Below the pieces are notes generated by a model that was given only the letters and a program-made list of their open reading frames with translations, had not been told where the DNA came from and did no database searches. This document shows positions 1 through 37,493 of a stretch of DNA of 37,493 nucleotides, one piece after another (positions within the stretch are counted from its first letter, which is position 1; each line of letters opens with the position of its first letter). The stretch comes from a virus. The position numbers and the translations under genes are program-made. The stretch lies in the IMG/VR virus record IMGVR_UViG_3300025818_000062, positions 1-37,493 of that record; one strand, written 5' to 3'.

Positions 1-1787
1 GGCGACACTATATGTTTCTTCAATGGTCTAAAATTGATATCGGATACCCATCATACCTTGCTTTCCAGAGAGAAATCTTTCTCCACATGGCTGCGTGCGA
101 AGCTGATCCTCGTTGTTTCGGTCAGCTATATACTAAGTGTCGTCGTTCTGGCTACACTAATGTATGCTCTGCTGTCCTTGTTGACGAAGCTAGTCAAGTT
201 AAAGAGAAGCTTCTCGGCATCCAGTCAAAGACTGGTAAAGACGCGCAGGAGAATATTTTCATGAAGAAGATAGTCTCTATCTTTAGAGGCTACCCATTCT
301 TTTTCAAACCTATCCAGGACGGTACCACGAACCCCCGTATGGAGCTGGCCTTCCGTGAGCCATCGAAACGTATCACCAAAAAGAATAAGACGTCGCAGCG
401 TGGGGATGCCCTCAATACGGTAATCAACTGGAAGAACACCACGAACAACGCCTATGACGGGGAGAAGCTACATATGCTGTATCTCGATGAGGCTGGGAAG
501 TGGGAGAAACCTACCGACATACGCGAGGCATGGCGTATAGAGCGTACCTGTTTGATCGTAGGTAAGCGCGTAGTAGGGAAGGCGCTGGTAGGAAGTACAG
601 TAAACCCTATGGATAAAGGTGGGGAGGAGTATAAAGGTCTGTGGAACGACTCCGACCCTAACGAACGCAACAACAACGGGCGTACACGCTCTGGGCTCTA
701 TCGCATCTTTATCCCTGCATACGAAGCCCTAGAAGGGTTCTTCGATAAATACGGGAACCCCGTAGTCGATGACCCAGAGAAAGAAATAGAAGGGGTCGAT
801 GGTCTCCCCGTAGACCAGGGGAGTCGTAAGTACCTGAAAAACGAACGCCACTCTTTTAGGGACGACCCCTCGGAATTAAACGAGATCATCAGGCAGTTTC
901 CGTTTACCGAGGACGAGGCGTTCAGGGATAGTATCGAGGGTAGTCTGTTCAATATAGGCAAGATATATCAACAGATTGAGCATAATGATAATCTATACCC
1001 TAACCCCGTGGTGCAGGGTAATTTCGTTTGGAGAGTAAAGGACGAGGAGGTTGTATTCTCCCCAGACCCGAACGGAAGGTTCCGCGTAGCGTGGCTACCG
1101 CCAGACCACCTCAGAAACAAAAAGGCAGACGATCGGGGTAAGCGTATGGCCCCCAATGCACACATAGGTGTAGGCGGGGTTGACTCATATGACCTGGATG
1201 CCACTGTAGACGGGAGAGGGTCTAAGGGTGCGCTGCATATGTACAACAAGTTCAATATGGACGTACCTCCGAATATGTTCGTAGTGGAGTATGCCTCTCG
1301 TCCAGACCTCGCCAGTATATTCTATGAAGACGTACTTATGTGTTCGTTTTTCTATGGGTACCCGCTTTTGATAGAAAACAACAAATACGGGATAGCAAGG
1401 TACTTTGAGTCGAGAGGATATGACGGTTATCTGATGGACCGCCCAGACTATCTGAAAACCCCGAACTCGTCAGCAAACGTAAGAACCAAGGGGATACCAT
1501 CGAACTCTCAGGACGTCATCCAGTCGCACGCCCAGGCTATCGAAGCGTATATCCACGACCACGTAGGTGTAAACGCAGAGGACGGGGAGATGGGTAAGAT
1601 GCTGTTTAACAGGACTTTAGAAGACTGGATAGGGTATAAGATAGACAAGCGTACCAAGTTTGACCTTACGATTAGTTCTGGATTGGCCCTTCTCGCAGCC
1701 CAAAAAGAGAAGAAAGAAAAACCAAAAGCGAACTTCTCAGACAAGAAATTTATCAGGACCTACACGCCAAAAGCCTGGCACTTGTAG
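1..1787 (+). CDS. terL: Terminase large subunit (5' truncated by window edge)
   Basis: This is the motor and nuclease that pumps phage DNA through the portal and cuts it. The frame is open to the left edge, so the N-terminus is probably missing; the first ATG in the window is at 12, and residue numbers count from it. The ATPase part shows a deviant Walker A (CRRSGYTN, residues 43-50), a Walker B (LHMLYLDE, 153-160) and a coupling-motif-like GSTVNP (194-199). The C-terminal RNase H-like nuclease has three candidate metal-binding acids: D391 in GVDSYDLD, E455 in LLIENNKYG and D551 in KFDLTISSG. The usual Walker A lysine is a tyrosine. The portal follows directly, as is usual in phage packaging modules. 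The small terminase subunit is not in the window. The family call is firm; the exact start is unknown. Confidence 0.92.
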   Translation, partial: RHYMFLQWSKIDIGYPSYLAFQREIFLHMAACEADPRCFGQLYTKCRRSGYTNVCSAVLVDEASQVKEKLLGIQSKTGKDAQENIFMKKIVSIFRGYPFFFKPIQDGTTNPRMELAFREPSKRITKKNKTSQRGDALNTVINWKNTTNNAYDGEKLHMLYLDEAGKWEKPTDIREAWRIERTCLIVGKRVVGKALVGSTVNPMDKGGEEYKGLWNDSDPNERNNNGRTRSGLYRIFIPAYEALEGFFDKYGNPVVDDPEKEIEGVDGLPVDQGSRKYLKNERHSFRDDPSELNEIIRQFPFTEDEAFRDSIEGSLFNIGKIYQQIEHNDNLYPNPVVQGNFVWRVKDEEVVFSPDPNGRFRVAWLPPDHLRNKKADDRGKRMAPNAHIGVGGVDSYDLDATVDGRGSKGALHMYNKFNMDVPPNMFVVEYASRPDLASIFYEDVLMCSFFYGYPLLIENNKYGIARYFESRGYDGYLMDRPDYLKTPNSSANVRTKGIPSNSQDVIQSHAQAIEAYIHDHVGVNAEDGEMGKMLFNRTLEDWIGYKIDKRTKFDLTISSGLALLAAQKEKKEKPKANFSDKKFIRTYTPKAWHL

Positions 1788-16910: not shown

Positions 16911-17276
16911 ATGTCAAATCTTATAAGGGAAGGGGATTCTAACCTAGCTAACTTTGGACAGTTAGGGGGTGTATACCTGCAAAGCGATGTTAATGATGGT
17001 TTTCTGGACCTTTCCTCTCAGGACTACAAGGTTGTAGCAATTCAGATTTTAGCTGACAACACCGCGATACAAGGCTCTTCGGGTAACTTAACTGAAACTG
17101 AGAATAATTTTGCTGTAAATGCCAATGGCGTCCCAACTCATAGCGGCATAGGATTCCCAAATGTGCCAAACACCGTTGGTTTTAAAGCTGGTGTTATCGT
17201 TTTTGGCAGATGGACTAAGCTAAGAATATCTGGCATTGACAGTGCTGTAGGTAAAGTTATTGCATACGTAGCATAA
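16911..17276 (+). CDS. Small structural protein, head-associated (121 aa)
   Basis: This 121-residue protein is strongly beta-patterned, rich in Gly, Asn, Val and Ala, with no membrane segment. It lies 21 bases before the scaffold-like gene and is first in the head cluster, so it is probably a virion component such as a head decoration or fibre-related protein. Strands such as YKVVAIQILAD, AGVIVFGRW and KVIAYVA suggest a small beta-barrel or sandwich. I recognise no named family. The start is set by the ATG 17 nt after the TATATTTG box and an A-rich leader. Confidence 0.62.
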   Translation: MSNLIREGDSNLANFGQLGGVYLQSDVNDGFLDLSSQDYKVVAIQILADNTAIQGSSGNLTETENNFAVNANGVPTHSGIGFPNVPNTVGFKAGVIVFGRWTKLRISGIDSAVGKVIAYVA

Positions 17277-17297
17277 TAAGCATACAATTTTAATTTA

Positions 17298-21997: not shown

Positions 21998-22839
21998 TGG
22001 CTAGAAACACTGTACCACTCGATCAGATTATAAACGACTTCATCATCACATTGGCTGACGATGACTACGCTGGTAATGCATCCGATACACAGATTAGGAC
22101 GCACGCGCTACGTGGTATCCGTGAGATGGGGTTTGATATGTCCAAGAAGATTCGTTCGCTGAAGCTAACCGTAAGCGCTACGAATACGATAGAGCTCCCA
22201 GATGATTTCGTTGATTGGAGTAAGGTAGGGGTGGTTGGTAGCGACGGCATCGTGTATGTACTCGGTGAGAACAAGAACGTAAACTATTCTCAGGCGTATG
22301 AGGACGGTAGCGGCAACAAGGTAGGGACCGCCGCCGAAGCCTATGATAGTGATGGGGATGGAGTATACGACAGGATTGATTCTAAGGGTGCCACGAATAG
22401 CGGCTCACCAGCAGCCTCTGACGATATAACCCAGGGGTTTGACTCATACATCTTTAGAAACTACGTATACGGGGCTACAAATGGCCTCTACGGGATTGGT
22501 GGTGGTCACTACTACGGTACCTTCCGCGTGAACCTCGATCAGAACAGAATAGAGCTGGAGACAAACCAGGATATCGGTGAGGCTGTTATCGAGTACGTTG
22601 CTGACGAGGCACGCTCCAAAAACCCAAGCGTACACGTATACCTTGAGGAGGCACTGACGTCGTACATGTACTACAAGATTATCGAGCGCAAAGCCTCTGT
22701 ACCTGCGAACGAGAAAGCCCGTGCTAGGCAGGAGTACTACAACGAACGCAGAAAAGCGAACGCACGTATTAAGTCATTCACGAAGGAGGAGGCGCTGAAG
22801 ACGATTAGAAAGAACTATAAGCAAGCACCTAAGTTCTGA
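21997..22839 (+). CDS. Tail ring / tail tubular protein A-like
   Basis: This 280-residue protein is probably a ring subunit below the portal. It opens with a helical segment (LDQIINDFIITLADDD, DTQIRTHALRGIREMGFD), followed by KLTVSATNTIELPDDFVDW, a pattern typical of tail tubular A/gp4-like proteins. The C-terminus is helical (YLEEALTSYMYYKIIERKA, then ARARQEYYNERRKAN), also typical. An insertion at 117-128 carries D-x-D-x-D-G-x-x-D-x-x-D, matching a thrombospondin type 3 calcium loop, in a Gly/Ser-rich region (about 102-145) likely exposed on the surface. It shares one base with each neighbour (TAATG upstream, TGATG downstream). Confidence 0.72.
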   Translation: MARNTVPLDQIINDFIITLADDDYAGNASDTQIRTHALRGIREMGFDMSKKIRSLKLTVSATNTIELPDDFVDWSKVGVVGSDGIVYVLGENKNVNYSQAYEDGSGNKVGTAAEAYDSDGDGVYDRIDSKGATNSGSPAASDDITQGFDSYIFRNYVYGATNGLYGIGGGHYYGTFRVNLDQNRIELETNQDIGEAVIEYVADEARSKNPSVHVYLEEALTSYMYYKIIERKASVPANEKARARQEYYNERRKANARIKSFTKEEALKTIRKNYKQAPKF

Positions 22840-25800
22840 TGCCTATTGATAAGATGATACCACGCTTCCTTGTCAGCGACGAGGACGAGCGTCTGCTAAA
22901 GGAGGGTGCCATGACGGATGCCCTCAACGTTTCTATATCCGAGGATGGGGATGGTAGCGAGGGGGTGCTTAAGAACGTAAAGGGGACAACGGCCATTACT
23001 GGTGCAACACTTGGTATCGGTGATGATGAGGTGAAAGTAATCGGTCAGGTTTCTGACTCGCAGCTTGGGTACATTTACTTCTTTGTAGCTACTGTGGGTC
23101 AAACTTTTGTCCATGATGCTATCTACAGAGTAAACACGAACACCAACGCTACTCAGTTGGTGTTTAAGAATACTTGGCTGAACTTTGACGAGGATGGATT
23201 CGTTAAAGCGGACGTATTAAACGGGTCTTTTCAGCAGGACGGAATCATACAGACTATTCTGTACTTCACTGACAATAAAAACGCTCCCAGGAAGATTAAT
23301 GTAGACAGGGCTATAGCAGGTGAGTACTCTGGACTTAGCTCAAGTAAGCTAGACTACGCTTTAAACTCTATTAAGGCGGCACCCACTAAGCCTCCAACTT
23401 TTTATTTTTCTACCGACACTTCAATAGATGCAAACAACTTTAGGTTAAGTACTTTCCAGTTTGCCTATCAGTACGTGTACACCGATGGGGAAGAGTCCGC
23501 TATATCCTCATATTCTAGTCTTTGCTTTCCAGATAGTTCGTCCATAATCGGAATTGACAACTCCTCTGTCGGTTCGGTTTCTACGTCAAACTACTATGAG
23601 GATAATGTATGTAACATAAAACTCAATTGGAGTAGCATCTCAGAAAGCCCCAAAAACATTCCAGACGTAAAAAAAGTAAGGCTGCTAGCGAGGAAGAGCA
23701 ACACAGGTGCCTTTAGGGTCATAGATGAGTTTGATCCTAATGCGAATCTCAATAGATATATATACGGCAGCTCCGTTTCCGTGTATGACAAAGACACGGC
23801 TATATACAGGTTTTTTAATGAAGGCGCCTACGCCGCTACAGACGCGAACACTGTAAACAAGCTTTATGACAACGTTCCCATTAAAACTGAAGGTCAGGCG
23901 ATTACTGGGAACAGATTAATGTATTCGAATTACTCGGAGGGATTTGCAAACGGAGACGTAAATGGCGACCCTGTAGACGCCACCCTAACAGTTTCCTATT
24001 CTGCGGCTAGGGGTGGCGGAGAAAACGGATCTTCAGCTAATGGCATTTCAGAGGACAACTCCAACACGAATGGAGATATAGCTATAGACTTCTCTACTCT
24101 GTTTACTACTTCGAATGTGCCAGCAGGAAGTACTACAACGGTAAAGTTTGAAACAGATCCTTCTGGATCCTTTGGAGACGCACCTGATGGGGCCATCGTG
24201 TTGGATGCGGTTGATTCTCTTGGCGGAACCTTTCAGGTTAAGTTTGGGGAAGGTCCCTCTGGAAGTGGTACAGCATCTGACATAATACCTATATATCAGG
24301 TTTCAGATGGTTGGAACTTTGAGCTTACGTTAACAAACGCCTCAGACATGACTCATGCGGAGTTTGCTACTTTCTTTGCAAATAACGTTACTGGGTATAA
24401 CTTTTCAAAAACTTACGACGTACTCCACTCCGCCATGCAGGGTGTTGTAGTGGACGGAAGCAATACGACTCTTTTCGGAACTGGCGATATAGTCGGGCTT
24501 GGTAGCGGAAACTACTCTGTAACCACGGCGTGGACTTATACGCCAGCTGATATTGATGTCTCTTCAGCTGTTGTTACATTAAAGCCCAGGATATATTTTG
24601 CCTCTATTAGCGGATGGGAAGGGGGCACTGTAGGTGTTAATACATACGCTATAACTACTCAGTCGTTTTTAGGAGGGGGTCTTCAAGGTACAATGTTTTA
24701 CGACATACCGTCTGCGAACCTTACTGGAAAGGTGTTTAACAGCACGGCAAACCACAGCTTATCGACATTCAAGGCTGGATCTACCCACGAGATAGGTGTT
24801 GTATACTATGACAAATACAACAGGTCTGGGAATGTAAACAAGATTGGAAGCGTATACGTTCTTCCTTTTGGGGATTCTGGAAGATCTGGCGATAACGGCC
24901 CAGCATCAATATCAGTTGCGTTTAACTCACAGCCTCCCACTTGGGCCGATAGATACCAGTTTGTATACCCTGGTATGGGTTCGTTCGATTCTGTTGTTTC
25001 CTACACGGTAGGAGGAGCTTACTATAACGCGACGGACGACCAAGACAGGCGGGTCTACGTCTCACTTAATACTCTTAATGATTTTTCAGAAGAAAAGTCT
25101 GCATTGCTTAGATACTCTTTCACAGAGGGTGACAAACTAAGAGTTATTAATTACGACTCTGCCTCTGGTGCTTACGCAACAAATCCATTGAACGTAACAT
25201 ATCCAAGGGCTAATGACGGAAGCGTTATAGAATTTGATGTTGTTGGGGTTGAAATCATAGACTCTGAGAAACTACATACAGGCTCGAACCATCAAGCAGG
25301 GCAGGAGGACCCTCATCACGGAACCTTTCTAGTGTTAGAGTCTCCAGCCATACATGCAAATCTTCAGGTTGATTCTAACAGTGATGGTACGGTTGATACT
25401 GGGTTGAAATATGTTGGTTTTGATTGGTATTCGATAAGCAATTCAACGTATCCAGACTCTGGAAACACTGCTGCGACTAACGCAAATTACTGGGGTCAAA
25501 GATGTTTGGTTGAGATACTAACTCCGTCTAAAATTGACAAAGAGGTCTATTATGAAATAGGTGAGTCCTACCCGATTGGTCCGCCAAGAGATCAAAACCA
25601 AGGGAGTAACAACCACGGTCCTTTAAGAGTCTTAAATTATGGGGATGTTCACTACAGGCCAACATCTTGTAAGACACCATTTAGGGATCCAAATCATCAA
25701 AGCCAAGCTAACGAATGGAACGAAGAGCATCCTGAAGACTGGAGGTACGAAACAATATATACTGAAAGTCAATCAGTTAGCGACTTCTTTAGTTCTAGCG

Positions 25801-27137
25801 ACTGGAATAAGGGTCGTGCACATATAGTTTTTGAAAACGCAGCAGAGGTAAGAAGACTAAACGGAATCACGTATAGCGAAGCATACGCCGAAGATGTAGC
25901 CAACCTTTCACTATCTTCTTTCAACCCCTCTCTTGCTAACTTCGACAGCCTTGACGGGAGATACGGGGCCATTAACTACATAGGTAACTACAACGACGAT
26001 TTAGTTGCCTTACAGGAAAACAAGTTTTGCTTGATTCCTGTAAACAAGAACATCCTTGAGTACGCCAGCGGTAGCGCAGACGTAGCAGTATCTACTAACG
26101 TGCTTGGTCAGCGCAGATACTCAGCTGGTGACTACGGGTGTAGCAACCATCCAGAAGCTGTTCTTATTCAAGACAACAGCGTATTCTTTGTAGACGAATC
26201 TAGACAGGCTGTATGCGCTCTGACTGGGGGTCAGTTAGTTCCTATTTCTGACAAGAGCATGTCTTCATTCTTTGAAGATTTCTTCACGAACAGCCACACT
26301 AAGTATGTGAGCGGATATGACCCAAGAGACAATACATATTACCTGACTGGACTTGGAGGTACATCCGAGACGGTTGGGTATGACGCAGCAAGAGGAGTGT
26401 GGCAAAGCAGGTACAGCTTTGCGCCAGATATCTACTCTAACCAGAACAACATGCTGTTTAGCGCTAAATACACTAGCGGAGATAATCTGTTCTGGAAACA
26501 CGACAGTACAACATACAACAGCTTCTACGGAACAGGATATCCATCAGAGGTTCAGATGGTTTCTAAGCTGTCCCCTTCCCGCGTTAAGGTATTTAACGCT
26601 TTGTCATATGAGGGTGATTCCGCATTGTGGGATGTGTCTACGAATGATATAGAGACGGATCTCGGACAGATTACAGGCGGGATAACAGAATGGGACGAAA
26701 GAGAGGGTTCTTACTACACTTCTATGCCTAGAAATAAAAAAACTGATATTATATACACCAGCAAATCGATCATATCTCTCGGAACTCTAACGCAGGAAAG
26801 TCCAGGCGTGTACTCTTCTACTTTGAGATTAAACAGATTACCAATACCTTTAGGTTCACCAGCAAACGTCTCTGTTTTTGTAAACAATACACAAAACAAT
26901 ACACAAGTAGCGGTAACCTCGGTTATTGGAAATGTAATAAGCTTTTCTGGCACTCCTAGTGTTGCTGGTCCAGCCACGATGACTATAGCAAAACAAAATT
27001 ACAGCTCTACTGAAGATTCAATGCGTGGTCACTGGATGAAAATCAAGATGCAGAACTCCGATACAACTAAACACGAGCTATACTGCATCAACACACACAT
27101 AACCGACTCTAAGTCTCATCATCCGTTAGGCGGATAA
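22839..27137 (+). CDS. Tail nozzle / muzzle protein (tail tubular protein B-like)
   Basis: This 1432-residue protein probably forms the tip of the short tail. The N-terminus (IPRFLVSDEDERLL, then GAMTDALNVSIS, VLKNVKGT) matches the start of nozzle/muzzle proteins, where a short peptide precedes the beta-propeller. The C-terminal platform has DYGCSNHPEAVLIQDNSVFF and GGQLVPISDKSMSSFF (about 1098-1146), a pattern I recall from crAss-like muzzle or stabilisation proteins. The middle (about 370-800) is Ser/Gly/Thr-rich and may be inserted receptor-contact domains. Residues 845-853 (DSNSDGTVD) fit a calcium loop. It follows the ring gene by TGATG and ends 16 bases before the 313-aa gene. T7 gp12 is much shorter (roughly 800 residues), so this is an expanded version. 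Confidence 0.75.
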   Translation: MPIDKMIPRFLVSDEDERLLKEGAMTDALNVSISEDGDGSEGVLKNVKGTTAITGATLGIGDDEVKVIGQVSDSQLGYIYFFVATVGQTFVHDAIYRVNTNTNATQLVFKNTWLNFDEDGFVKADVLNGSFQQDGIIQTILYFTDNKNAPRKINVDRAIAGEYSGLSSSKLDYALNSIKAAPTKPPTFYFSTDTSIDANNFRLSTFQFAYQYVYTDGEESAISSYSSLCFPDSSSIIGIDNSSVGSVSTSNYYEDNVCNIKLNWSSISESPKNIPDVKKVRLLARKSNTGAFRVIDEFDPNANLNRYIYGSSVSVYDKDTAIYRFFNEGAYAATDANTVNKLYDNVPIKTEGQAITGNRLMYSNYSEGFANGDVNGDPVDATLTVSYSAARGGGENGSSANGISEDNSNTNGDIAIDFSTLFTTSNVPAGSTTTVKFETDPSGSFGDAPDGAIVLDAVDSLGGTFQVKFGEGPSGSGTASDIIPIYQVSDGWNFELTLTNASDMTHAEFATFFANNVTGYNFSKTYDVLHSAMQGVVVDGSNTTLFGTGDIVGLGSGNYSVTTAWTYTPADIDVSSAVVTLKPRIYFASISGWEGGTVGVNTYAITTQSFLGGGLQGTMFYDIPSANLTGKVFNSTANHSLSTFKAGSTHEIGVVYYDKYNRSGNVNKIGSVYVLPFGDSGRSGDNGPASISVAFNSQPPTWADRYQFVYPGMGSFDSVVSYTVGGAYYNATDDQDRRVYVSLNTLNDFSEEKSALLRYSFTEGDKLRVINYDSASGAYATNPLNVTYPRANDGSVIEFDVVGVEIIDSEKLHTGSNHQAGQEDPHHGTFLVLESPAIHANLQVDSNSDGTVDTGLKYVGFDWYSISNSTYPDSGNTAATNANYWGQRCLVEILTPSKIDKEVYYEIGESYPIGPPRDQNQGSNNHGPLRVLNYGDVHYRPTSCKTPFRDPNHQSQANEWNEEHPEDWRYETIYTESQSVSDFFSSSDWNKGRAHIVFENAAEVRRLNGITYSEAYAEDVANLSLSSFNPSLANFDSLDGRYGAINYIGNYNDDLVALQENKFCLIPVNKNILEYASGSADVAVSTNVLGQRRYSAGDYGCSNHPEAVLIQDNSVFFVDESRQAVCALTGGQLVPISDKSMSSFFEDFFTNSHTKYVSGYDPRDNTYYLTGLGGTSETVGYDAARGVWQSRYSFAPDIYSNQNNMLFSAKYTSGDNLFWKHDSTTYNSFYGTGYPSEVQMVSKLSPSRVKVFNALSYEGDSALWDVSTNDIETDLGQITGGITEWDEREGSYYTSMPRNKKTDIIYTSKSIISLGTLTQESPGVYSSTLRLNRLPIPLGSPANVSVFVNNTQNNTQVAVTSVIGNVISFSGTPSVAGPATMTIAKQNYSSTEDSMRGHWMKIKMQNSDTTKHELYCINTHITDSKSHHPLGG

Positions 27138-27153: not shown

Positions 27154-28095
27154 ATGGACCCAGTAACACTAGCAGCATTACTTAAAGGCGCAGGAAAGCT
27201 TATCGGGGCTGTAGGCCCAGCGGCTGGTCAGTTCCTAGGCGCCAGAGGAGCCACTGAAGCGCTTAAGCAGTCACCAGAACAAATCGCCGAGCAGTATGAG
27301 GAATTAAAGGCCGCTATGCCCCAATACGGCGTTGGTAGCGCATGGAACGAGTACCTCGCTATGTCTAAGCAAGACCCAGCTGCTGATATGCAGCGTCAGA
27401 TTGCCGCCGAGCAAGAGGCTTCTAGTGTTGGGGCTTTGAAGGCTGGTGGGGCTAAAGCGTTGTTAGGTGGGCTTGGGGCTGCACAAAGACAGGCAGCACA
27501 ATCGAGAATGGGTATTGAAGCTAAGTCAGCAGAAAGACAGCAAGCAGCTCTTGGTCAGTACGCTGGTCAACAGCAGAGGGTTCAGGACGCTAACACAGCG
27601 CTTCAACAGCAACTGGCTAGTTCTGAGTTCACTGCTCTCCGTGATGCTGAACAGTATAACAGAGGGTTAGAGGCTCAAAGAAAAGCAGCTCTGGGTCAGG
27701 CGTTTGGCTCTATCGCTGGGCAGTTTGGACAGGGTTTACTCAAGGGGATTGACTTTGGTGGAGGTAAATCTTTTGCAGACGCTGGTTTTGACGTAGGGCA
27801 ATACACAACGTTAGAGGGTGACGTGGTTAACCCCAACCTATATAGGGACGCGGGTGATTATGAGGACATGATGTCGGCTTATGGGGGTAATCCTTACAGG
27901 GACGGTGGAATGATGACAAAGGGTGCTTTCTCTCACAAATCCAACCCAATCGACATCATGCAAGACGGGGCTAAGGTAGGGGAGATGACTGGAGGGGAGG
28001 CTATCCTAAATCCAGATCAGCAAAAGAAAGTGGCTAAGCAATCACCATACTTCCGCAAGCTGATGCGTGAGTTCTCAATGAGAAACAGAAGATGA
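27154..28095 (+). CDS. Internal virion / ejection protein (313 aa)
   Basis: This is probably a protein packaged in the head and expelled before the DNA, as with T7 gp14. It is Ala/Gln/Gly-rich: a hydrophobic N-terminal stretch (TLAALLKGAGKLIGAVGPAA, residues 4-23) that could enter a membrane, a long Gln/Ala helical region (about 40-185), a glycine-rich segment, and a C-terminal signature with GGEAILNPDQQKKVAK (280-295) then QSPYFRKL. The GGEAILN type string recurs near the C-termini of phage ejection and tape-like proteins. It overlaps the next gene by ATGA. Its start lies four bases after a TATATTTG box. Function is inferred from composition and position after the nozzle gene. Confidence 0.7.
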   Translation: MDPVTLAALLKGAGKLIGAVGPAAGQFLGARGATEALKQSPEQIAEQYEELKAAMPQYGVGSAWNEYLAMSKQDPAADMQRQIAAEQEASSVGALKAGGAKALLGGLGAAQRQAAQSRMGIEAKSAERQQAALGQYAGQQQRVQDANTALQQQLASSEFTALRDAEQYNRGLEAQRKAALGQAFGSIAGQFGQGLLKGIDFGGGKSFADAGFDVGQYTTLEGDVVNPNLYRDAGDYEDMMSAYGGNPYRDGGMMTKGAFSHKSNPIDIMQDGAKVGEMTGGEAILNPDQQKKVAKQSPYFRKLMREFSMRNRR

Positions 28096-29531
28096 TTAAA
28101 TATCCGATGCCAGGCCAGGTTCCAGACCTTTACAAAGGGTTCAGAGAGGAGCTTGGTAATATAGAGAAGAGAAAACAAGAGAAAGAGGCCCGTGGTCTTG
28201 AACTGGCTTCTATGATTGAGATGGCTGACCAGTCTACTATGTTCGGTGGTGATTACTCCGAGGCGCAGCAGATGGCCCAGTGGATGACAGACCATATAGA
28301 CGATTTCACTGACAGTAAAGAAGGGATAATTGAGTTCAGGCAAATGGCCCAGCAACTCAATAACTTTATTGATGCGTCTGAGGCATACAAGAATCAGAAT
28401 TTCGGTACAGCGCAGGCAGGGCTATCGCAGGGCACTTGGATGGGACATTCGGGCAGAAAAGCATCTGGTGTAGACCCATACGAGAAAGACGGGTTCATGG
28501 ATGTTAAGAAGAACGAGGATTACGAGATGGCGTATATGGCTCTTAATCGGGAGCGTAAATTACAGGTTGATGAGAACGGGAGACCTCGACTGAGCCAACA
28601 GGGACGTATCGAAAACCCGTTTATGCCTAAGCTTGAGGAGCTTCCTTTTGAGGGAGGGTTTGAGTGGTTCGAGTCAAACTCAAAGGGTTATAGCTTCCCA
28701 GAAGGACCTAAAGACGCTAAAGACTGGATTAAAGCCAAGGCGGAGGATCCAAAACTGGAACGTAAGATTGCTAAAGCCTGGAAAGAAGCTAGCGGAAACC
28801 CTGGTGATTTAGAATCCCTTATGAAGGAGGATAAGTTTATGAAGGCAGCTAAAGACCAGTTTACTAAGGACGCTATGCGTTCCTTCCATACGCATTACGC
28901 ACCACCTAAGCCAGAGGTTGTGAAAGTAGACGAGGATAAAACACTCTCTGGCAGGTTCAAAAAGCTAATTGCTGGGCAATTCGATCCTGGGGATATGCCA
29001 AAGATTTCGGCCAGAGGAGAAGAGGAGGTTCCTCCATTAGGTGCTGCACTCGGAAGTATGCGATCCTCAGTCCCAGCACTGACAACTGGATTCGACTCTA
29101 TGTATGAATTAGCAAAGCCTATCACGGGAATGGCTATCGGAGAAGACAGAGAGATTGTAGGCTTCAATGTAGACGCCTTCGGCAATATGTACGTAGTAAT
29201 CAGAGAGCCAGGACAAATTGGAGGAGAAGGCGAGAATAAAGACGTGGTGAAATCGAACGAGCCAGGTATGATTCTCAGAACCGTTAAAGTTGAAGCAGAC
29301 TCTATGCTCTCTAGAACGTTAGACGACTACATAAAACCAGACATACAGCAAGCCCTCATGAATCTTTCTAAGAGAAACATAGAGAGTCTTCCGCCTGTCG
29401 GTCTTTCCGCAGCCAAGAATGCAGCCGCTGTAGCAGGGTCTATAGCATCTGGAGGTGACGGTAGTTATAACGCAAGAGACTATAAGTACAATAACTGGGG
29501 TATCTTCGATAGCGCTATGGCGTTCAGATAA
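28092..29531 (+). CDS. Internal virion protein, second cargo candidate (479 aa)
   Basis: This 479-residue protein is mostly helical and charged. The first 105 residues include coiled-coil-like helices (FREELGNIEKRKQEKEARG), and the middle (about 190-300) is Lys/Asp/Glu-rich. The C-terminal third is more compact, with REIVGFNVDAFGNMYVVIRE (about 354-373) as a beta hairpin, and the last 60 residues are Ala/Ser/Gly-rich. No enzyme motif is visible. It is coupled to the 313-aa gene by ATGA and sits before the giant gene, the same place as the gp15-like core protein in T7-type phages. The cargo role is inferred from this order. Confidence 0.62.
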   Translation: MIKYPMPGQVPDLYKGFREELGNIEKRKQEKEARGLELASMIEMADQSTMFGGDYSEAQQMAQWMTDHIDDFTDSKEGIIEFRQMAQQLNNFIDASEAYKNQNFGTAQAGLSQGTWMGHSGRKASGVDPYEKDGFMDVKKNEDYEMAYMALNRERKLQVDENGRPRLSQQGRIENPFMPKLEELPFEGGFEWFESNSKGYSFPEGPKDAKDWIKAKAEDPKLERKIAKAWKEASGNPGDLESLMKEDKFMKAAKDQFTKDAMRSFHTHYAPPKPEVVKVDEDKTLSGRFKKLIAGQFDPGDMPKISARGEEEVPPLGAALGSMRSSVPALTTGFDSMYELAKPITGMAIGEDREIVGFNVDAFGNMYVVIREPGQIGGEGENKDVVKSNEPGMILRTVKVEADSMLSRTLDDYIKPDIQQALMNLSKRNIESLPPVGLSAAKNAAAVAGSIASGGDGSYNARDYKYNNWGIFDSAMAFR

Positions 29532-29548: not shown

Positions 29549-29556
29549 TATATTTG
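29549..29556 (+). promoter_or_regulatory. Candidate -7 box TATATTTG, 4 nt before ATG of the giant gene
   Basis: An exact TATATTTG lies in the 29-base gap after the 479-aa gene, again four bases before the ATG (29561). The 16-base string from CTATATTTG to the ATG differs from the 27142 site at one position. It fixes the start of the giant gene. Confidence 0.65.
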
Positions 29557-29560: not shown

Positions 29561-32500
29561 ATGGATGAAAAAGACCTCCAAAACTACATTGAATGGGCTA
29601 AGAGAGGCAATCTCTCTAATAAAGCAGCAGCTAGGTATTTCCAGCTCTCTGGCCTGACGGGTGATGATTTTAACGCGGCTATGTCTCAGATGCCTGTAGA
29701 CGTAGACCCCAACGTATACATCAAAGAAGAAGAGAAGCAACCCGACCCGTATGCTGGATTCCAGCCGATGGAGCAAGAACAGATTAAGGGTATGTTTGAC
29801 AACGACCTTAATTTGATTAACGGGAGTGTTGTTCAACAATCTGAAGAAGAAGCTGTAAACTTCCTAAGAAACAAGTACAATCGATACGGCTTTCAATTTG
29901 ATGAGTCAATCCCTGGTGCCGACTTCATAAAAGTAACGGCTCCAAATGGAGAGACCTCTAGATTTAAATTCGGGGAGTACGCCGAAAGCCCTTACGAACA
30001 GGAGGTTCAGAGAGAGTATCAAACAAGAACAGAGGATTTGGTCTCTTTCATGAACAAGAACATGATTGAAGACGCAGATAGTATAAACGATTTAGCTAAA
30101 GCTAATTTCCTTGGTACTACAGTTTTTGACGACTACGAATCTATCGAGAACGAATCACTGGCTATCGAGAACGAATCTAAAAAAGTCCAGGAGGGACTGC
30201 GACAGTATGATGAGTTCTTAAACGCATACGAGGTAGCTCTCTCACAGAACGATAAAGAATCAGCCGATAAAATAGCTAGTGATTTAAGGGACATAAAGAA
30301 AGATCTTGAAAATCAACAAGCTTCTATTTCTCGCAGGGCAGACGCTTACACATCAAATGTGGGTAGATATTTTTCTTTAAAGGAAGATCAAGGGTCAACT
30401 ATCGGTATGATGTTGTATCCGTTTATGGGGCCTGGTGTTGAATCTGTTATTGAGGGGCTCTCTCAAATTGGTTTAGCCATTGGTAAAGTAGCTTCCGATA
30501 TCCCAGAAAAAGGCATCTATGCTCTTTCTGATCAGTCATTTGCGCGGGCATATGATAAGGCAGCTAAGGAGGCTGACTGGACAGACTGGGCAGATATGGT
30601 TAGGTCTGGTTATGGTCTTTCCGAAGAGAGGGTGGAAGAGTTTCAGCGTAGAAATATATTAACTCAGGTTTATTCTGGGGCTATGCAGTCCTTGCCTTCA
30701 TTTGTGAGCCCTTCAAGGTATTTTAACACAATTGCTTTGGTAGGGCAAACTATGCGTCATGCCGATGATATGATGTCTGGTGAAGAGTGGGATGACGTTT
30801 CCCCAGAGTCTAAAGCTAAATTCATCCTACCCTATGTATCCTCTCAGGTAGTGCTTGAGCGTCTTGGTTTCCGTCAAATGAAAGCCTTTAGCGGCTTTAC
30901 TAATAGACTGGTATCGAGAGCTATCGGTAAGGCTGGAGCAAACCTATCATCCAAAACGCTTTATGAAATAATTGAGCAGGATGTTAAAAGCTCATTAGGT
31001 AGAGCTGGTCTTGCTGCTGGCGCTTCGTTTTTTGCCGAGGCTGAGACAGGGCTTCTTCAGGAGATATCATCGGAAGCTTTAAAACAAGCATACAATCGCT
31101 GGGGTGAAAAAACCAATAATTTTGAAGTAGCTGAATCTACTAACGAATTTGTAAAGCAAGTCCTTACTGCTGCGCTTCACGAGGGATTAGGAGGGTTTAT
31201 GCTTGGCGCTCCAGGTATATACAGGGCTGGAAAGACTAGTTTCTCAGATGAGGATATGCTCAAGCTGAACGTCATGAGAAACGAACAAATCCTTGACATC
31301 CTGGATGCGAAGGACAGAATGGATGTGGTCTCTGGAAAAATGACACCTAAAGAGTATGCAAACAGAAAGAAGAAAAATAAAGAGCTACACGATATCGTCA
31401 GGCAGATTCCTGAAGATGCTAACACGTCTACACAAAAACAGCTCTTTAGATTGCTTCAAAGAGAATCTGACCTTAAAAACAGAGTAGGGAGCAAGGGAGA
31501 CCGAATGAGCGCAAGAGAGCAAACAGAGCTTTTGGATGTTCAGAACAAAATAAAAAAGATAGGGGCTGATTATCAGCAGATGTCTCCAGAGGAGAAACAG
31601 CAAGAGATAAAAGAAATAACTCAACCGATAACACCTACAGGGGGTACGGTCGTAGAGACAGCGAATGGTCAGAAAGTAGAAATCCAGCCAGAGGAAGTTA
31701 CCATAGAAGAGGATGCTGCTAATCAAGCGATGGAGGAAGCTCCGCAGAGCGAAGAAGGTGCTCAGCTTTCTCTGTTCGACGAAACAGAGGGGATGGCAGA
31801 ACCACAAGCAGAAGAGCCATCTACAGAGCAACCCGCACAAGAGCCGCAACAGAGAAAGGAAGACGTAGCTGATTTTGCTGAAATAGAAGTAGAAGGCATG
31901 ACACCAGAAGGTCTTGCTGAAGCTGGATTTTCACCTGAGTTTCAGGCAATTATAGGAAGAGTGATTAAAGCTGTGGGTAAACTTCCTGGTGGTAAGGGAC
32001 AGATTATAAGAAACCATAGAACAAAAGCGTCGATAGACGCCTATTCCAATGAAGCGGAGAGATTAGCACTTGAGTCTCAGGGAAGGGGTAACGAATTTGT
32101 ACCGATTCAGTTTGGAGAATTTGTATACGGTTTTGTAAACATAGTGAATGGTCAGCCAACTGAGGTTCACCTTCTAGACACAAACTCCGCAGAGTTTGTA
32201 GAGAGCGTGAAAGAAGCGGCTAGAAAGCTAAATCTTTCATACGCTATACCCTCTGCTACAGACCTTGTGTCTGAAGAGCTTATTACGCACTATATGCTCT
32301 ACGATATGTTTGGGAAAAATGGTACCAAACGAGAGGAGTTCTATAATAAACTTAAAGAGCTTTCTAAGAATAATCCAGCGCTAAAAGCGTTGATTGACAG
32401 AGTTAGATCGGATTATTTTAAAGCTTCTGAAGCTAAAAAACAAGAGGAGGTTATAGCCGCGTTCTTTATTGATTACAGAAAAGAGCCGTCAAGATACAGA

Positions 32501-35500
32501 AGCGTATGGCAGCGTATCAAGGATTGGTTTAATAATCTGTTTGCTGGCAACAGGGTCATCAATAACGAACAGGATCTCTTTGCTGTAGCAAATCAGGTGG
32601 TCAATATCCTAAAGGGTAAATCGGTAAAGTTAGACGTACAGCCTGGTGCAGCACCGCCGCAGCAACAAGCCGATGAGGTCTCTCAATCCCGCCAGCGTGG
32701 TGAGTTTACCTATCTACAGAATGAAACTATTTACTACGATTTCGACAGAGAGGCTGGTGTAGAGTATATGGAGTGGGCGACAGCGCCCCCACCTGTACCA
32801 CAGAAGATTAAGGTAAACGACTTCTACCATTTCAGAAACTGGTACAACAAGATGACTGCCAATCAGGAGTACCCTGGCATCATCACGAACATGTACATCA
32901 TCAAGGATGGCAAGCGCCAGAAGGTGAATCCTCCAAAGCCAAAGACCGATGCAGAGGGCAACAAAGTGGTGATGCAAAGAATGCCAACAAGAGCACAGAT
33001 TAAATCTCAAAGGTTTGTCACTGAGCAAGGCGATATAGCAGAGTCAAGAAGGCAGTACTCGGAGATGATTAAAGAGGTTGGTGATCTGTTGCAAAACTCT
33101 GTTCTGGCTGGTCAAGCATCTCTTCAGGATTTCTACCCAGAGGGAAAGGCAAATCTAAGGAGAGGTGAGCAAGACTTCGAAGGTTTGATTATCGCTAAGA
33201 AGAATATTCAGGCGGCTATAGATTCTGGTATTACGGAGGATCAGCTAAAAGAGATGCGAGGCACAGCCAGCTACGTATCCAAGCAAAAACACCCAGAGCT
33301 GTTCAATATGAGCGGTATTAAGCGTTTTAATGAAGCTGGACAGGGTGATATTATTTCAGATGGGGAAATAAGCTTTAGCAGAACATCAGGATATGAAGCG
33401 TCCAAAGAACACATTAAACACTTTACTGGAGGAAAAAAAGAACTTAAAGGGAGCCGAGAAGATTTAAATGGAAAGAGAGGGGTTAGCGTAGGGTTTGATA
33501 CTTCGTATATAGAGAGAGAAAAAAAGAACCCTTCTGGCATTAAAAAGCAATCAAGCCTAAAACTTTCTGGTAAAGGCGTTAAGCCTGAACTTAAAGGTAA
33601 TGAGATTATATCCACTCATTTAAACCCTCGGGATGCTGCCAGTGTAATTAGATCCTTAGAAGTACAAGCCAATCTCGATGCTTTAAGCAAAAGACTTAAG
33701 GCTGGAGAGCGAGGAGAGGTTGTATTGACTTTTAATTCGTTGAATCTAGATTCTATAGCGGCAAATCCATATGTCGCTGCAACGATAGCTCTTGAGCTTA
33801 AGAAAAACATCCTGGAAGGTATTGAAAAAGGAAACCAAATGGAATGGGTGGTAGAGAAGGTCCAGGATATACTGAATACCACAACCTCTAACATAGGTTA
33901 CACTAGCTTTGAGGGTGGGAAAGAAATGGTAGTTCAGAAGATTAGGCAAGCTTATGCAGATCGCGAAAAAGAAACACCAACTAAAACTCTATCGGAAGCT
34001 TTTGAAGATGTATGGGTATTAAAGAACGGCACACAAGATGTTATTGAAATACTTGACTCCTTTATAAAAGGGGAGGTAAGGGATCCGTTTGCCACCTCTA
34101 AAAAATCTTTTATTGATAAAATCGCTAAGATAATTGGTTACGAAAAAGCTCTTGACTTCGCTCAAAAAAACGACTTTTTAGATCCTTTTTTAAACGACGA
34201 GAATTCTGGGCATATTATAGCGTACAGAACCATTCCTTACATAGTTCGAGAAGACGTAGGAGTGGACTTGGGACTGGTTTCCGCGAAGATACCGAATGAC
34301 ATTGGATTTAAAGGCGCTATAGTCTCAAAAACTAAGAAGTTTGAGACTAGGATGAAGTTTATGCTCGAATTAATCCCTATAAATGAATCTTATAAAGATT
34401 TTAAAGGGTCTACCATAGGTGAGACTCAAACTGAGTCAGCAAGAGGAAACGTTAAAGGGGAAATTTCATTTTCCAGAGCTTCTGGGCGTGTATCACAAAA
34501 AGTTGTAGATGTTAGCGGGGTAAAAGGGGTCCCAGTGAACAGCCTACTGCAAATCATGGGTAAGGCTTCTAAGGCCGAACAAGCTGTACTGCAAAGTCTG
34601 TTAAGTGTATACCCTAACGTAAAGTTTATCCCGAAGGAAGACGTAGACGAATTCTTCGAAAAGAAGATGTTACAACCTCTTGATGAGGTGAGGGACCACG
34701 CAGATTACGGTTTGGACAGGTTGTACGGCAGAAGATACAGAAAGCTTGTGGCAACTACGGTTCCTTTCCTCGGAGATCCAGAAATTTACGGTACAGCAGG
34801 TGTTTACGGCGACCACTTCGATTATCCTGTGCATGCTCACATGAGAATGTTTACGGACCCTGAGCAACCAGGAGTTCTCTATGTTTCTGAGCTTCAGTCA
34901 GATACGTATCAGAAAGGGCTGGAAAATTCGTTTGGCAGAGGTCAGCTTCCAGAATCAGTAATAATTCAGCAATATGCTTCCGACGAGTTTGACGTAAGTG
35001 TTCAAAATCTTGAATTCCTAAAGCACATTTTAGAAAATTACGATGACTTCAGGTCGGAGCTTATCTCTGCTGCTGGAGGAAAAGAAAATGCATTTAATGC
35101 AGACTGGTGGGATGACGTGCTTCAAGGAGTGGAAAACGTTTCAGACGAAAGGGCGGGAGATGCACCCAATGTCGCAAGCCTTTTGAGCAATACACTAAAG
35201 AACGATCCAAACTTCAATGTAAGAGCGCTTAGAATCTTGTTGAGGCAGTTCGCTATGTCCAACCTCAACGCACCAGTTAACTCTACAGAAAAACAAATTG
35301 AAGATATCATAAATGACCACTTTAATAAGTATCCTTTTGTCCAGCCAGGAGAGAAAAACAATCTAGGTGGCTTTGCAAGTGACTTAGTTATCACTATTGA
35401 CTATATGGCTGATGCCGTTGCAGATATCGCTATTGGGGAGGAACTCGCAGACGCAAGCCACAAAGAGAGGATGGCGTTCTACGACGATACTGTAAAGGTT

Positions 35501-37493
35501 GTGGAGCGACACAGAAAAACAAAAGATGAAGAGGTCATAGAAGGTGTTTCTTCCGCAAAGAATTCTTGGGAGAAACAGATTATTAGATACGCCGTCAAGA
35601 GAGCTCAGGAGAACGGGGATAAGGTTGTTAGACTCCCCACCGAAAAAACCGCCGCTGACGTTCAGTGGTGGGATATGGATGACACGGACCTTCAGGAATA
35701 TATGAGTGACGAGTTTGGTGTAGATACTGATATGGGAGGACCAATGACTCAAGGGATGCTTGAGGAACAAAGACAAAAACAAGGCCCACTTAGAAAGCGA
35801 TACAGAGACCTTCCCAAGACGTTGCGATCCATCGGGCTTGATTCTAGACTTGTAAGAGACGAGAATGGCAATAAATGGTACGAGGTTGATGTACCAGCTC
35901 CAGACTATCGGATGGTTATGTTCTCCAAATCTTCTGGCAGAAACAACCTTGGGGATATAGGAGGTGCTACATGGGATATGCGCGAGCAGAGCAATATGGC
36001 TGACTTTGCTGACGTGTGGCTTACAAGACTCCAGGATAAGTACCGAAGGGTATTTAAGTTGCAGGAAGACGTAGCTAAAGGCACGCAAGGACAGGTTAGA
36101 AAGGAGGAGGATTTCAGGATGGCTGAGGAGCTTATGTATGGTAAGGCTGCCAATGATCTCGAAAGACTCGATCAAGCCACGAAAGACATCTCTAACAAGT
36201 TGAAAAACAATGGGTTGACTGTTCAGGATCTTGATGAGTACATGTATAACCTCCACGTAGAGGAACGTAACGCCGTCATTAGTGAACGCACCGAGGGTAA
36301 GAACCAAAACGGTAGTGGTAAAACAAACGAACAAGCAGCTGAGTATTTTGCTAATCTGTCCGAGGATAAGAGAGGTAAGCTTGAGGATGTAGCTAAGACA
36401 GTAAGGCTAATACAGCAAGACACCAGAGACGCTATGGTTAACCTTGGTCTTGAGACTCAAGAAACCATCGACGCTTTTGAAGAAATGTTCAGTAACTACG
36501 TACCGCTACAGGGTAGGGCAAACGACGAGGGCGACCTTGGTTACTCACCATACCCTAATGGAGGTACTGGGTATAGCGTTACAGGAAGCACAACAAAGCG
36601 AGCAAAAGGTAGAGGCACTCAGGCCGACAACATTGTAGCTCAGGTTATTTCGCAGAACGCAGCAGTGCGCATCAAGGGTCGTACCAATGAGGCTATGAAC
36701 GCCCTGTATAAGCTCGTGGAGAATAACCCGAATCCAGATGTATGGCAGGTGCTAGACAAAGAGGAGAACGGGTACAAGAATGACGATCCGAATATCGTTT
36801 CTGTACGTGTAGACGGAGTACAAAAGGCTATTAGATTCAAAGACCCATCATACGCGCAAGCACTTAGGTCTATGAACCTACCACAGACTAATCACTTCGT
36901 TAAGATGATGGGGTCGCTTAACTCATGGCTGCGGGCAGCGTTCACATCTAGAAACCCTGAATTCATTCTCAGTAACTTCTCACGCGATATCCAGTCAGCT
37001 ATATTCAATGCATCCGCAGAAACAGACATCGAGGGTGGATTCCTGAACGGAACGGACGCTATGGGTAAGATATTCAAGATGGTGGGTCCATCCTTGAAGA
37101 CCCTTGTGCGTAATGAGGTTGGTGCTTCACCTGATCCGCTTATCATGAAGTACTACGAGCAATTCAAGGAGGATGGCGGTAAGACTGGATGGGCGTACCA
37201 GAAAAGCTTAGAGGACATTGCTGCTGAATTAGAGATTGATGATAGTGGTAAGACTGGCGCACAAAAGATTATAGGCGGGGTTAAAGGAGCTCTTGAGTTT
37301 ATAGAAGGTATGAACGATGCATTTGAGAACAGCATACGTCTATCGGCCTATATCGCAGCGAGAGAAGGCGGTATAAGCAGAGAGAAATCAGCTCAATTTG
37401 CTAAGAACATTACAGTAAACTTCAATAAGCAAGGGGAGTGGGGTGCAGCTGTTAACGCTACATACCTCTTCTTTAATGCGTCTGTTCAGGGTT
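29561..37493 (+). CDS. Giant polyvalent virion protein (>=2644 aa, 3' end outside window)
   Basis: One frame is open from the ATG at 29561 to the edge: 2644 codons and no stop. Order: helical N-terminus with hydrophobic stretches (about 281-310 and further ones near 480-545) that may insert in membrane; an acidic disordered linker (about 700-770) containing QLSLF (735-739), a sliding-clamp-type motif; a helical region; then three strings EISFSRTSG (1269-1277), EISFSRASG (1634-1642) and MVMFSKSSG (2118-2126) dividing the rest. The 1643-2117 part has ELQSD (1777-1781) and SWEKQIIRYAVKRAQENG (2002-2019), like the EIQSD-type domain of phage polyvalent proteins. The part after 2126 has AAFTSRNPEFILSNFSRD and, at the edge, NFNKQGEWGAA...FFNASVQG, like polyvalent domain LPD38. 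Position after the cargo genes suggests ejection into the host. A virion RNA polymerase is a rejected alternative: no DxDGD-like motif was seen. Confidence 0.85.
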   Translation, partial: MDEKDLQNYIEWAKRGNLSNKAAARYFQLSGLTGDDFNAAMSQMPVDVDPNVYIKEEEKQPDPYAGFQPMEQEQIKGMFDNDLNLINGSVVQQSEEEAVNFLRNKYNRYGFQFDESIPGADFIKVTAPNGETSRFKFGEYAESPYEQEVQREYQTRTEDLVSFMNKNMIEDADSINDLAKANFLGTTVFDDYESIENESLAIENESKKVQEGLRQYDEFLNAYEVALSQNDKESADKIASDLRDIKKDLENQQASISRRADAYTSNVGRYFSLKEDQGSTIGMMLYPFMGPGVESVIEGLSQIGLAIGKVASDIPEKGIYALSDQSFARAYDKAAKEADWTDWADMVRSGYGLSEERVEEFQRRNILTQVYSGAMQSLPSFVSPSRYFNTIALVGQTMRHADDMMSGEEWDDVSPESKAKFILPYVSSQVVLERLGFRQMKAFSGFTNRLVSRAIGKAGANLSSKTLYEIIEQDVKSSLGRAGLAAGASFFAEAETGLLQEISSEALKQAYNRWGEKTNNFEVAESTNEFVKQVLTAALHEGLGGFMLGAPGIYRAGKTSFSDEDMLKLNVMRNEQILDILDAKDRMDVVSGKMTPKEYANRKKKNKELHDIVRQIPEDANTSTQKQLFRLLQRESDLKNRVGSKGDRMSAREQTELLDVQNKIKKIGADYQQMSPEEKQQEIKEITQPITPTGGTVVETANGQKVEIQPEEVTIEEDAANQAMEEAPQSEEGAQLSLFDETEGMAEPQAEEPSTEQPAQEPQQRKEDVADFAEIEVEGMTPEGLAEAGFSPEFQAIIGRVIKAVGKLPGGKGQIIRNHRTKASIDAYSNEAERLALESQGRGNEFVPIQFGEFVYGFVNIVNGQPTEVHLLDTNSAEFVESVKEAARKLNLSYAIPSATDLVSEELITHYMLYDMFGKNGTKREEFYNKLKELSKNNPALKALIDRVRSDYFKASEAKKQEEVIAAFFIDYRKEPSRYRSVWQRIKDWFNNLFAGNRVINNEQDLFAVANQVVNILKGKSVKLDVQPGAAPPQQQADEVSQSRQRGEFTYLQNETIYYDFDREAGVEYMEWATAPPPVPQKIKVNDFYHFRNWYNKMTANQEYPGIITNMYIIKDGKRQKVNPPKPKTDAEGNKVVMQRMPTRAQIKSQRFVTEQGDIAESRRQYSEMIKEVGDLLQNSVLAGQASLQDFYPEGKANLRRGEQDFEGLIIAKKNIQAAIDSGITEDQLKEMRGTASYVSKQKHPELFNMSGIKRFNEAGQGDIISDGEISFSRTSGYEASKEHIKHFTGGKKELKGSREDLNGKRGVSVGFDTSYIEREKKNPSGIKKQSSLKLSGKGVKPELKGNEIISTHLNPRDAASVIRSLEVQANLDALSKRLKAGERGEVVLTFNSLNLDSIAANPYVAATIALELKKNILEGIEKGNQMEWVVEKVQDILNTTTSNIGYTSFEGGKEMVVQKIRQAYADREKETPTKTLSEAFEDVWVLKNGTQDVIEILDSFIKGEVRDPFATSKKSFIDKIAKIIGYEKALDFAQKNDFLDPFLNDENSGHIIAYRTIPYIVREDVGVDLGLVSAKIPNDIGFKGAIVSKTKKFETRMKFMLELIPINESYKDFKGSTIGETQTESARGNVKGEISFSRASGRVSQKVVDVSGVKGVPVNSLLQIMGKASKAEQAVLQSLLSVYPNVKFIPKEDVDEFFEKKMLQPLDEVRDHADYGLDRLYGRRYRKLVATTVPFLGDPEIYGTAGVYGDHFDYPVHAHMRMFTDPEQPGVLYVSELQSDTYQKGLENSFGRGQLPESVIIQQYASDEFDVSVQNLEFLKHILENYDDFRSELISAAGGKENAFNADWWDDVLQGVENVSDERAGDAPNVASLLSNTLKNDPNFNVRALRILLRQFAMSNLNAPVNSTEKQIEDIINDHFNKYPFVQPGEKNNLGGFASDLVITIDYMADAVADIAIGEELADASHKERMAFYDDTVKVVERHRKTKDEEVIEGVSSAKNSWEKQIIRYAVKRAQENGDKVVRLPTEKTAADVQWWDMDDTDLQEYMSDEFGVDTDMGGPMTQGMLEEQRQKQGPLRKRYRDLPKTLRSIGLDSRLVRDENGNKWYEVDVPAPDYRMVMFSKSSGRNNLGDIGGATWDMREQSNMADFADVWLTRLQDKYRRVFKLQEDVAKGTQGQVRKEEDFRMAEELMYGKAANDLERLDQATKDISNKLKNNGLTVQDLDEYMYNLHVEERNAVISERTEGKNQNGSGKTNEQAAEYFANLSEDKRGKLEDVAKTVRLIQQDTRDAMVNLGLETQETIDAFEEMFSNYVPLQGRANDEGDLGYSPYPNGGTGYSVTGSTTKRAKGRGTQADNIVAQVISQNAAVRIKGRTNEAMNALYKLVENNPNPDVWQVLDKEENGYKNDDPNIVSVRVDGVQKAIRFKDPSYAQALRSMNLPQTNHFVKMMGSLNSWLRAAFTSRNPEFILSNFSRDIQSAIFNASAETDIEGGFLNGTDAMGKIFKMVGPSLKTLVRNEVGASPDPLIMKYYEQFKEDGGKTGWAYQKSLEDIAAELEIDDSGKTGAQKIIGGVKGALEFIEGMNDAFENSIRLSAYIAAREGGISREKSAQFAKNITVNFNKQGEWGAAVNATYLFFNASVQG

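What the first reader, a model, noticed from the sequence alone, without database searches (positions are those of the whole stretch)
29561..37493. Giant polyvalent protein of at least 2644 residues in the ejection-protein position
Seen: a single uninterrupted + frame from 29561 to the window edge, with an ELQSD element (1777-1781) and a C-terminal segment with FTSRNPEF...NFSRD and NFNKQGEWGAA...FFNASVQG. Known: such strings occur in phage polyvalent proteins (large multi-domain proteins thought to enter the host with DNA and counter host defences); LPD38 is my best match for the last part. Inferred: it is carried in the virion and delivered through the short tail. Most of the first 1270 residues match nothing I know and could hide new effector domains.
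Basis: partly seen in the sequence, partly recalled or inferred. Interest (0 to 1): 0.75.

Follow-up and report, generated by a model that had tools for sequence, protein, structure and literature searches.

The report
Giant multi-domain phage cargo protein
A short-tailed virus, probably of Bacteroidota bacteria, carries next to its tail genes a giant many-part protein of a known kind (polyvalent protein) that is probably injected with its DNA; its self-cutting enzyme has lost a metal-binding residue, and its one recognisable effector part may be an acetyltransferase-like enzyme seen in hundreds of other phage sequences.

Summary
The open frame is real: 2,644 codons, no stop, cut by the contig end, under purifying selection against relative L008. 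It is an LPD38-type polyvalent protein in a crassvirus-like (muzzle-bearing) podovirus, sitting after the muzzle gene and two small virion-type genes. In Cellulophaga phage phi18:3 the proteins in the same positions, including its 1,935-aa giant, are annotated from virion MS/MS. That giant is not detectably homologous, so virion location here is inferred from position.

Corrections: (1) LPD38 itself is not in the window. The conserved end is the ~500-residue block before it; in L008 LPD38 starts 62 residues beyond the window-equivalent end, and about 374 residues are missing. (2) The N-terminal half is not blank: residues 771-995 are a zincin metallopeptidase whose first zinc ligand is Glu (EELITH), with catalytic Glu, second His and third Glu kept. 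(3) The ELQSD element marks a divergent copy of a widespread unnamed phage domain; a canonical copy's AlphaFold model resembles GNAT acetyltransferases (moderate support). (4) Residues 1262-1615 have no relatives and are replaced by unrelated sequence in L008, suggesting module exchange. The gene starts directly behind a Bacteroidota TAnnTTTG box. Verdict: a real new variant of a known kind.

The parts
29549..29556 (+). TATATTTG: Bacteroidota -7 promoter box, exactly 4 nt before the ATG (leaderless spacing)
   Evidence: 4 of 37 TAnnTTTG sites in the window have this exact gap to an ORF-opening ATG, no other gap from 0 to 30 more than 1; 16 such sites in relatives L008-L029
29561..37492 (+). 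giant polyvalent-type gene, 2644 codons, 3' end missing (about 374 residues, by L008)
29561..31630 (+). residues 1-690: fast-evolving N-terminal region; 92-306 and 366-679 shared with L013, 361-669 with L028; residues 86-131 resemble the Manatee Spring phage giant (weak)
31871..32545 (+). residues 771-995: zincin metallopeptidase (MPTase) domain with variant site EELITH; E906, H910, E963 kept, first ligand His replaced by E905
   Evidence: HMM built without it: E 1e-19; hhalign 98%; E906/H910/E963 invariant in 15
32753..33343 (+). residues 1065-1261: conserved 'NWYN' domain of unknown function
   Evidence: conserved in most close relatives; 33% to L008 over 767-1261
33344..34405 (+). residues 1262-1615: orphan module, replaced by an unrelated ~456-aa stretch in L008
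33368..33382 (+). ISFSR boundary motif (1270-1274); EISFSR recurs at 1634-1639
34463..34477 (+). ISFSR boundary motif (1635-1639)
34478..35899 (+). residues 1640-2113: ELQSD module (N-core 1749-1791; 208-residue insert 1792-1999; C-core from 2000), GNAT-like fold by comparison
35915..35929 (+). VMFSK boundary motif (2119-2123), just before the C-terminal block
   Evidence: such motifs in 17 of 68 windows upstream of the block against 3.2% background
35966..37492 (+). residues 2136-2644: conserved block that precedes LPD38 in relatives (H..ERN, GSG, N..RD, NFN..G signatures)
28092..29531 (+). 479-aa gene in the position of phi18:3 gp121 (MS/MS virion protein); homology to gp121 not detected
27154..28095 (+). 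313-aa likely ejection/cargo protein, related to phi38:1 gp99
   Evidence: hhalign 94.6%
22839..27137 (+). muzzle protein (tail gate), PF25731/PF25729
1827..4268 (+). portal protein (phrog_6547)
3..1787 (+). terminase large subunit (phrog_6681), 5' open

Best explanation
It is a phage polyvalent protein used as virion cargo. Proposed course: the gene is read late in infection by the host RNA polymerase from its own leaderless Bacteroidota promoter; the ~3,020-residue product is packed near the portal; on infection it leaves through the portal and muzzle with the two small ejection proteins, at least partly unfolded, and in the host it releases or presents its effector modules (among them the ELQSD, GNAT-like module and the orphan module 1262-1615) before or while DNA enters. 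The conserved C-terminal block plus LPD38 would be the packaging or delivery platform, the middle the exchangeable payload. Shown by computation: the gene, its homologies, the gene order, the variant peptidase site, the module replacement and the promoter box. Shown by others in related phages: slot proteins are in the virion (phi18:3 record; phi-crAss001, PMC10172136). Inferred: virion presence here, injection, the GNAT-like activity, the platform role.
For: C-terminal block shared with 454 IMG/VR loci and LPD38 in 15 of 15 full-length relatives; MPTase domain at E 1e-19; ELQSD N-core at E 3e-7 by a profile built without it. Muzzle found in 10 of 10 relatives tested, terminase phrog_6681 in 14 of 17, and in the closest relatives the giant follows the muzzle and homologues of the 27154 and 28092 genes. 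phi18:3 gp114, gp120, gp121 and gp123 annotated from MS/MS. The Elemovirus giant in the same slot carries the same MPTase clade (hhalign 97%). Replaced segment 1262-1615 between conserved flanks, with FS[RK] motifs near both ends.
Against: No proteomics for this phage or its close relatives; the MS/MS-supported phi18:3 giant is not detectably homologous to this one. The C-terminal block has no recognisable fold, so the platform role is a guess. No PADLOC or NCBIfam match, so nothing points to a particular defence being countered.
Confidence: 0.78

Rival explanations
1. It is mainly a structural ejection or channel protein (like T7 gp16 or P22 gp16): the long chain forms the trans-envelope conduit and the enzyme-like parts are relics.
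For: Slot next to ejection proteins; the C-terminal block model is almost all helical; the peptidase has lost its first zinc ligand.
Against: The MPTase keeps catalytic Glu, second His and third Glu in all 15 aligned; the middle is exchanged in L008 as effectors are; no 19-residue segment of the giant exceeds mean hydropathy 1.4. The two roles need not exclude each other.
Confidence: 0.2
2. It replaces the virion RNA polymerase of crassviruses: an early-transcription enzyme hidden in the unassigned residues.
For: Same slot after the muzzle and cargo genes as the RNA polymerase-associated cargo of phi-crAss001 (PMC10172136).
Against: No DFDID-coding string in the window or 17 related records (an exact-motif test only); no PDB match; the C-terminal block is shared with phages of quite different type. 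The Bacteroidota box points to host polymerase for some genes at least.
Confidence: 0.03
3. It is an intracellular host-takeover protein made during infection and not packaged.
For: Virion presence is inferred, not measured; a leaderless own promoter would allow separate timing.
Against: Late structural neighbourhood conserved across the clade; MS/MS annotation for the same slot in phi18:3; phage polyvalent proteins typically lie among virion genes (PMC5512222).
Confidence: 0.08

Closest known systems
Phage polyvalent proteins (Iyer et al. 2017, PMC5512222), LPD38-bearing type, e.g. giant of Vibrio phage 252E42.2
   Same: Pre-LPD38 block 33.5% identical over 494 residues; multi-domain, MPTase, late-gene position
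   Different: LPD38 itself lies off the contig; the Vibrio giant carries a weak methyltransferase match where this has MPTase, NWYN and ELQSD modules; different phage type
DarB-like antirestriction giant of Burkholderia phage BcepMigl (gp16, 4658 aa)
   Same: Same C-terminal block, and LPD38 there
   Different: Has lysozyme-like (SLT), methylase, helicase and PBECR1 matches; none found here
Elemovirus gp18 (3694 aa) and Manatee Spring phage giant (3859 aa)
   Same: Same slot behind a homologous muzzle; Elemovirus gp18 has an MPTase of the same clade, with intact HEIFH
   Different: No detectable C-terminal block or ELQSD domain
phi-crAss001 cargo proteins (gp45, gp46, RNA polymerase-associated gp47/gp49/gp50)
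   Same: Slot after the muzzle; very large virion cargo
   Different: Not RNA polymerase-like by the tests made
Cellulophaga phage phi18:3 gp123 (1935 aa)
   Same: Same slot, annotated from virion MS/MS
   Different: No detectable sequence homology

Membership tests
Phage polyvalent protein | Several distinct globular domains in one large polypeptide | tested here: met
   MPTase, NWYN, ELQSD and C-terminal block
Phage polyvalent protein | Encoded among late virion genes | tested here: met
Phage polyvalent protein | Shares domains with known polyvalent proteins | tested here: met
   C-terminal block shared with the DarB-like giant of BcepMigl, MPTase, ELQSD in other LPD38 giants
Phage polyvalent protein | Delivered into the host with the DNA | not testable with these tools
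   only by analogy with slot proteins in phi18:3 and phi-crAss001
LPD38 subfamily | LPD38 domain (PF18857) | tested here: inconclusive
   absent from the 2644 residues, but the contig ends 62 residues before its start in L008, and 15 of 15 full-length relatives have it
Zincin MPTase | HExxH motif | tested here: not met
   EELITH at 905-910; relatives have HExxH or EExxH; so 'MPTase-derived domain', not a proven peptidase
Zincin MPTase | Catalytic Glu, second His ligand and third Glu ligand | tested here: met
   E906, H910, E963 invariant in 15 sequences
GNAT acyltransferase (ELQSD domain) | GNAT fold | tested here: inconclusive
   canonical ELQSD model (pLDDT 88): GNAT rows up to Z 8.8 (AtaT 6gtq, 117 residues, 3.5 A) and 8.6 (TacT3, GmvT); the only other common rows match the helical hairpin 76-135; Foldseek alone has no hit at E <= 0.001
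GNAT acyltransferase (ELQSD domain) | Q/RxxGxG/A acetyl-CoA loop | tested here: inconclusive
   not seen in standard form; [EQ][LI]QSD..Q.GR stands at the end of the strand before the next helix
Crassvirus virion RNA polymerase | DFDID active-site motif | tested here: inconclusive
   no exact DNA motif in window or 17 records; records are fragments and variants would be missed

The most novel reading that the evidence does not exclude
A crassvirus-like phage clade fills the cargo slot that holds the virion RNA polymerase in crassviruses with a modular effector carrier whose payload is exchanged between relatives; its ELQSD module belongs to a widespread, unnamed, atypical GNAT-fold enzyme family injected by hundreds of phages, and its resident peptidase has repeatedly changed its first zinc ligand from His to Glu, giving either a switched-off processing step or a new metal site.
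Probability: 0.3. Interest if true: 0.72.

Novelty: new variant of a known kind. Interest (0 to 1): 0.5.

Why it matters
Polyvalent proteins are known from tailed phages and conjugative elements; a full-text search of the open literature found no paper that names them together with crass-type phages. If phages with the crassvirus tail gate use the same slot for a polymerase in one lineage and for exchangeable effectors in another, the slot is a general injection port whose contents can be swapped and tested in cultured flavobacterial phages. The ELQSD domain occurs in at least 518 viral loci, was absent from Pfam and the open literature by the searches made, and gets a first testable enzymatic hypothesis.

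Tried and rejected
Pfam matches FAM25, Bacteriocin_IIi, DUF3926 and DUF4706 are below their cut-offs and rejected as noise. Single-sequence scans of IMG/VR with the whole protein and with module 1262-1615 found no relative; tblastn of 1-500, the ELQSD region and 1262-1615 against phages found none. PDB profile hits of the MPTase alignment are charged helical repeats and were rejected; PDB sequence searches with the C-terminal block and ELQSD gave nothing usable. Foldseek and VIA-align of the C-terminal block gave no match above helical background. phmmer of portal and muzzle against the PDB missed the crassvirus structures, so the muzzle call rests on Pfam. The MAFFT alignment of the window ELQSD with canonical copies (A7) was mis-registered behind the insert and was not folded; a canonical copy was folded instead. 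FS[RK] motifs as peptidase cleavage sites were considered: enriched before the C-terminal block (17 of 68 against 3.2%) but they may simply be the last strand of each module. NCBIfam and PADLOC: nothing for the giant. Stx-phage relatives seen were left unfetched as not needed.

Full report
Observation. The frame from 29561 is open to the last full codon of the record, 2644 residues. The window is the whole of a linear 37,493-bp IMG/VR record, so the truncation is a contig end. The coding signal is strong: against L008, 1028 aligned codons differ at 24, 15 and 55% of first, second and third positions.

Which virus. The terminase matches phrog_6681 and the portal phrog_6547. The 1432-aa protein at 22839-27137 matches the crassvirus muzzle families PF25731 and PF25729. 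Annotated relatives by terminase and portal are Elemovirus, a Manatee Spring phage, Cellulophaga phages (Pachyviridae, Pervagoviridae), Maribacter phage Panino and Tenacibaculum phage Gundel_1. Among records found by the giant's C-terminal block, 10 of 10 tested have the muzzle and 14 of 17 the terminase; all of these records may be fragments. In the closest ones the muzzle and homologues of the 27154 and 28092 genes stand directly before the giant.

C-terminal block and the missing end. Residues 2151-2644 align with residues 2172-2697 of the 3066-aa giant of Vibrio phage 252E42.2, whose LPD38 domain begins only at 2756. In L008, the nearest relative (77% here), LPD38 starts 62 residues beyond the position where the window ends and the protein runs 374 residues further. 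All 15 full-length relatives scanned have LPD38. The block with LPD38 folds as a mostly helical unit of moderate confidence (pLDDT 77.5) without a recognisable match.

Metallopeptidase. A profile from relatives, made without the window and L008, finds residues 771-995 at E 1e-19. In the alignment of 15, E906, H910 and E963 are invariant: the catalytic Glu and two of the three zinc ligands of an MPTase. The first ligand is His in part of the relatives and Glu in the others; the window and L008 have EExxxH, one residue longer. Iyer et al. describe an HEXXXH variant with a bent helix (PMC5512222); the passages read do not mention His to Glu. On a tree of the C-terminal block the change needs three steps, two of them forced by well supported branches. 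Whether this kills the peptidase is open.

ELQSD module. The ELQSD string belongs to a domain found in at least 518 IMG/VR loci, in several LPD38 giants, without a Pfam model; its PHROG match (phrog_7348, 'endolysin') spans a 2564-position profile and the name probably refers to another part of it. A profile of canonical copies, made without the window, recognises the window's N-core (1749-1791, E 3e-7) and, in the right order, its C-core from residue 2000 (hhalign 69%, E 4e-5), separated by a 208-residue insert where canonical copies have a variable helical hairpin. The canonical model is confident (pLDDT 88). Among solved structures the matches that cover the core are GNAT acetyltransferases (AtaT, TacT3, GmvT, NatD, Naa10; Z 7-9), while the other common rows match only the hairpin. 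Foldseek alone is not significant and the standard acetyl-CoA loop is not visible. I rate a GNAT fold at about 65%, an active acyltransferase at about 45%, and activity of the window's divergent copy lower. Iyer et al. report two GNAT families in polyvalent proteins (PMC5512222); whether ELQSD is one of them I could not test.

Module replacement. Between flanks of 33% (767-1261) and 70% (1616-2644) identity to L008, residues 1262-1615 have no counterpart; L008 has about 456 unrelated residues there. No relative of this stretch was found. The stretch begins close to EISFSR and ends 19 residues before the next EISFSR; such FS[RK] motifs are enriched just before the C-terminal block across relatives (17 of 68 against 3.2%).

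Slot and delivery. In phi18:3 the muzzle-position protein gp114, the small gp120 and gp121 and the giant gp123 are annotated from MS/MS of virions. The window's 27154 product is related to phi38:1 gp99 in that slot (hhalign 94.6%); 28092 shows no such link. The Elemovirus giant has the same MPTase clade. In phi-crAss001 this slot codes for cargo, including polymerase-associated proteins, thought to be extruded partly unfolded (PMC10172136). This makes virion packing and injection the best reading, but it is an inference from position: the phi18:3 giant and this one share no detectable sequence.

Expression. A Bacteroidota -7 box, TATATTTG, ends 4 nt before the ATG of the giant. The same gap occurs at four window genes and at 16 sites in relatives L008-L029, against at most 1 and 8 at any other gap (near-duplicate records are included). 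This fits leaderless transcripts made by the host polymerase and a host in Bacteroidota; that TAnnTTTG is the Bacteroidota -7 consensus is from my own knowledge.

Verdict. A real, LPD38-type polyvalent protein, a new variant by its slot, its altered peptidase site and its unassigned modules; ordinary in kind. The parts most worth an experiment are the ELQSD domain and the His-to-Glu peptidase.

Noticed in passing
window 11065, 21248, 27142, 29549 (TAnnTTTG sites, + strand): Four genes start exactly 4 nt behind a TAnnTTTG box (ATG at 11077, 21260, 27154, 29561), as expected for leaderless transcripts; ORF 21227 probably starts at 21260.
   Followed up: partly
window 4689-7115 and 7887-11009: Two long genes share repeated segments (300 nt at 74%, 249 nt at 72%) and an alpha-L-arabinofuranosidase-type match (PF09206): likely paralogous receptor-binding or sugar-cleaving fibres placed between portal and the later virion genes.
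   Followed up: no
window 11399-13555, 13558-16644: Two large ORFs (718 and 1028 aa) without any PHROG or Pfam match between the fibre-like genes and the next virion genes.
   Followed up: no
L091 10229-15718 (Maribacter phage Panino): The 1829-aa slot protein annotated 'tRNA methyltransferase' shows a weak but 567-column hhalign match to the C-terminal block (76.7%): the annotation may be wrong.
   Followed up: no
G001 (record of L008), 61567-68024: The 78-kb record of the nearest relative has a second set of muzzle matches in addition to the one at 13031-17581: a chimeric or two-phage record, or two muzzles.
   Followed up: no
window 28092-29531: 479-aa gene conserved in L008 and L009 directly before the giant, no family match; likely second cargo protein.
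   Followed up: partly
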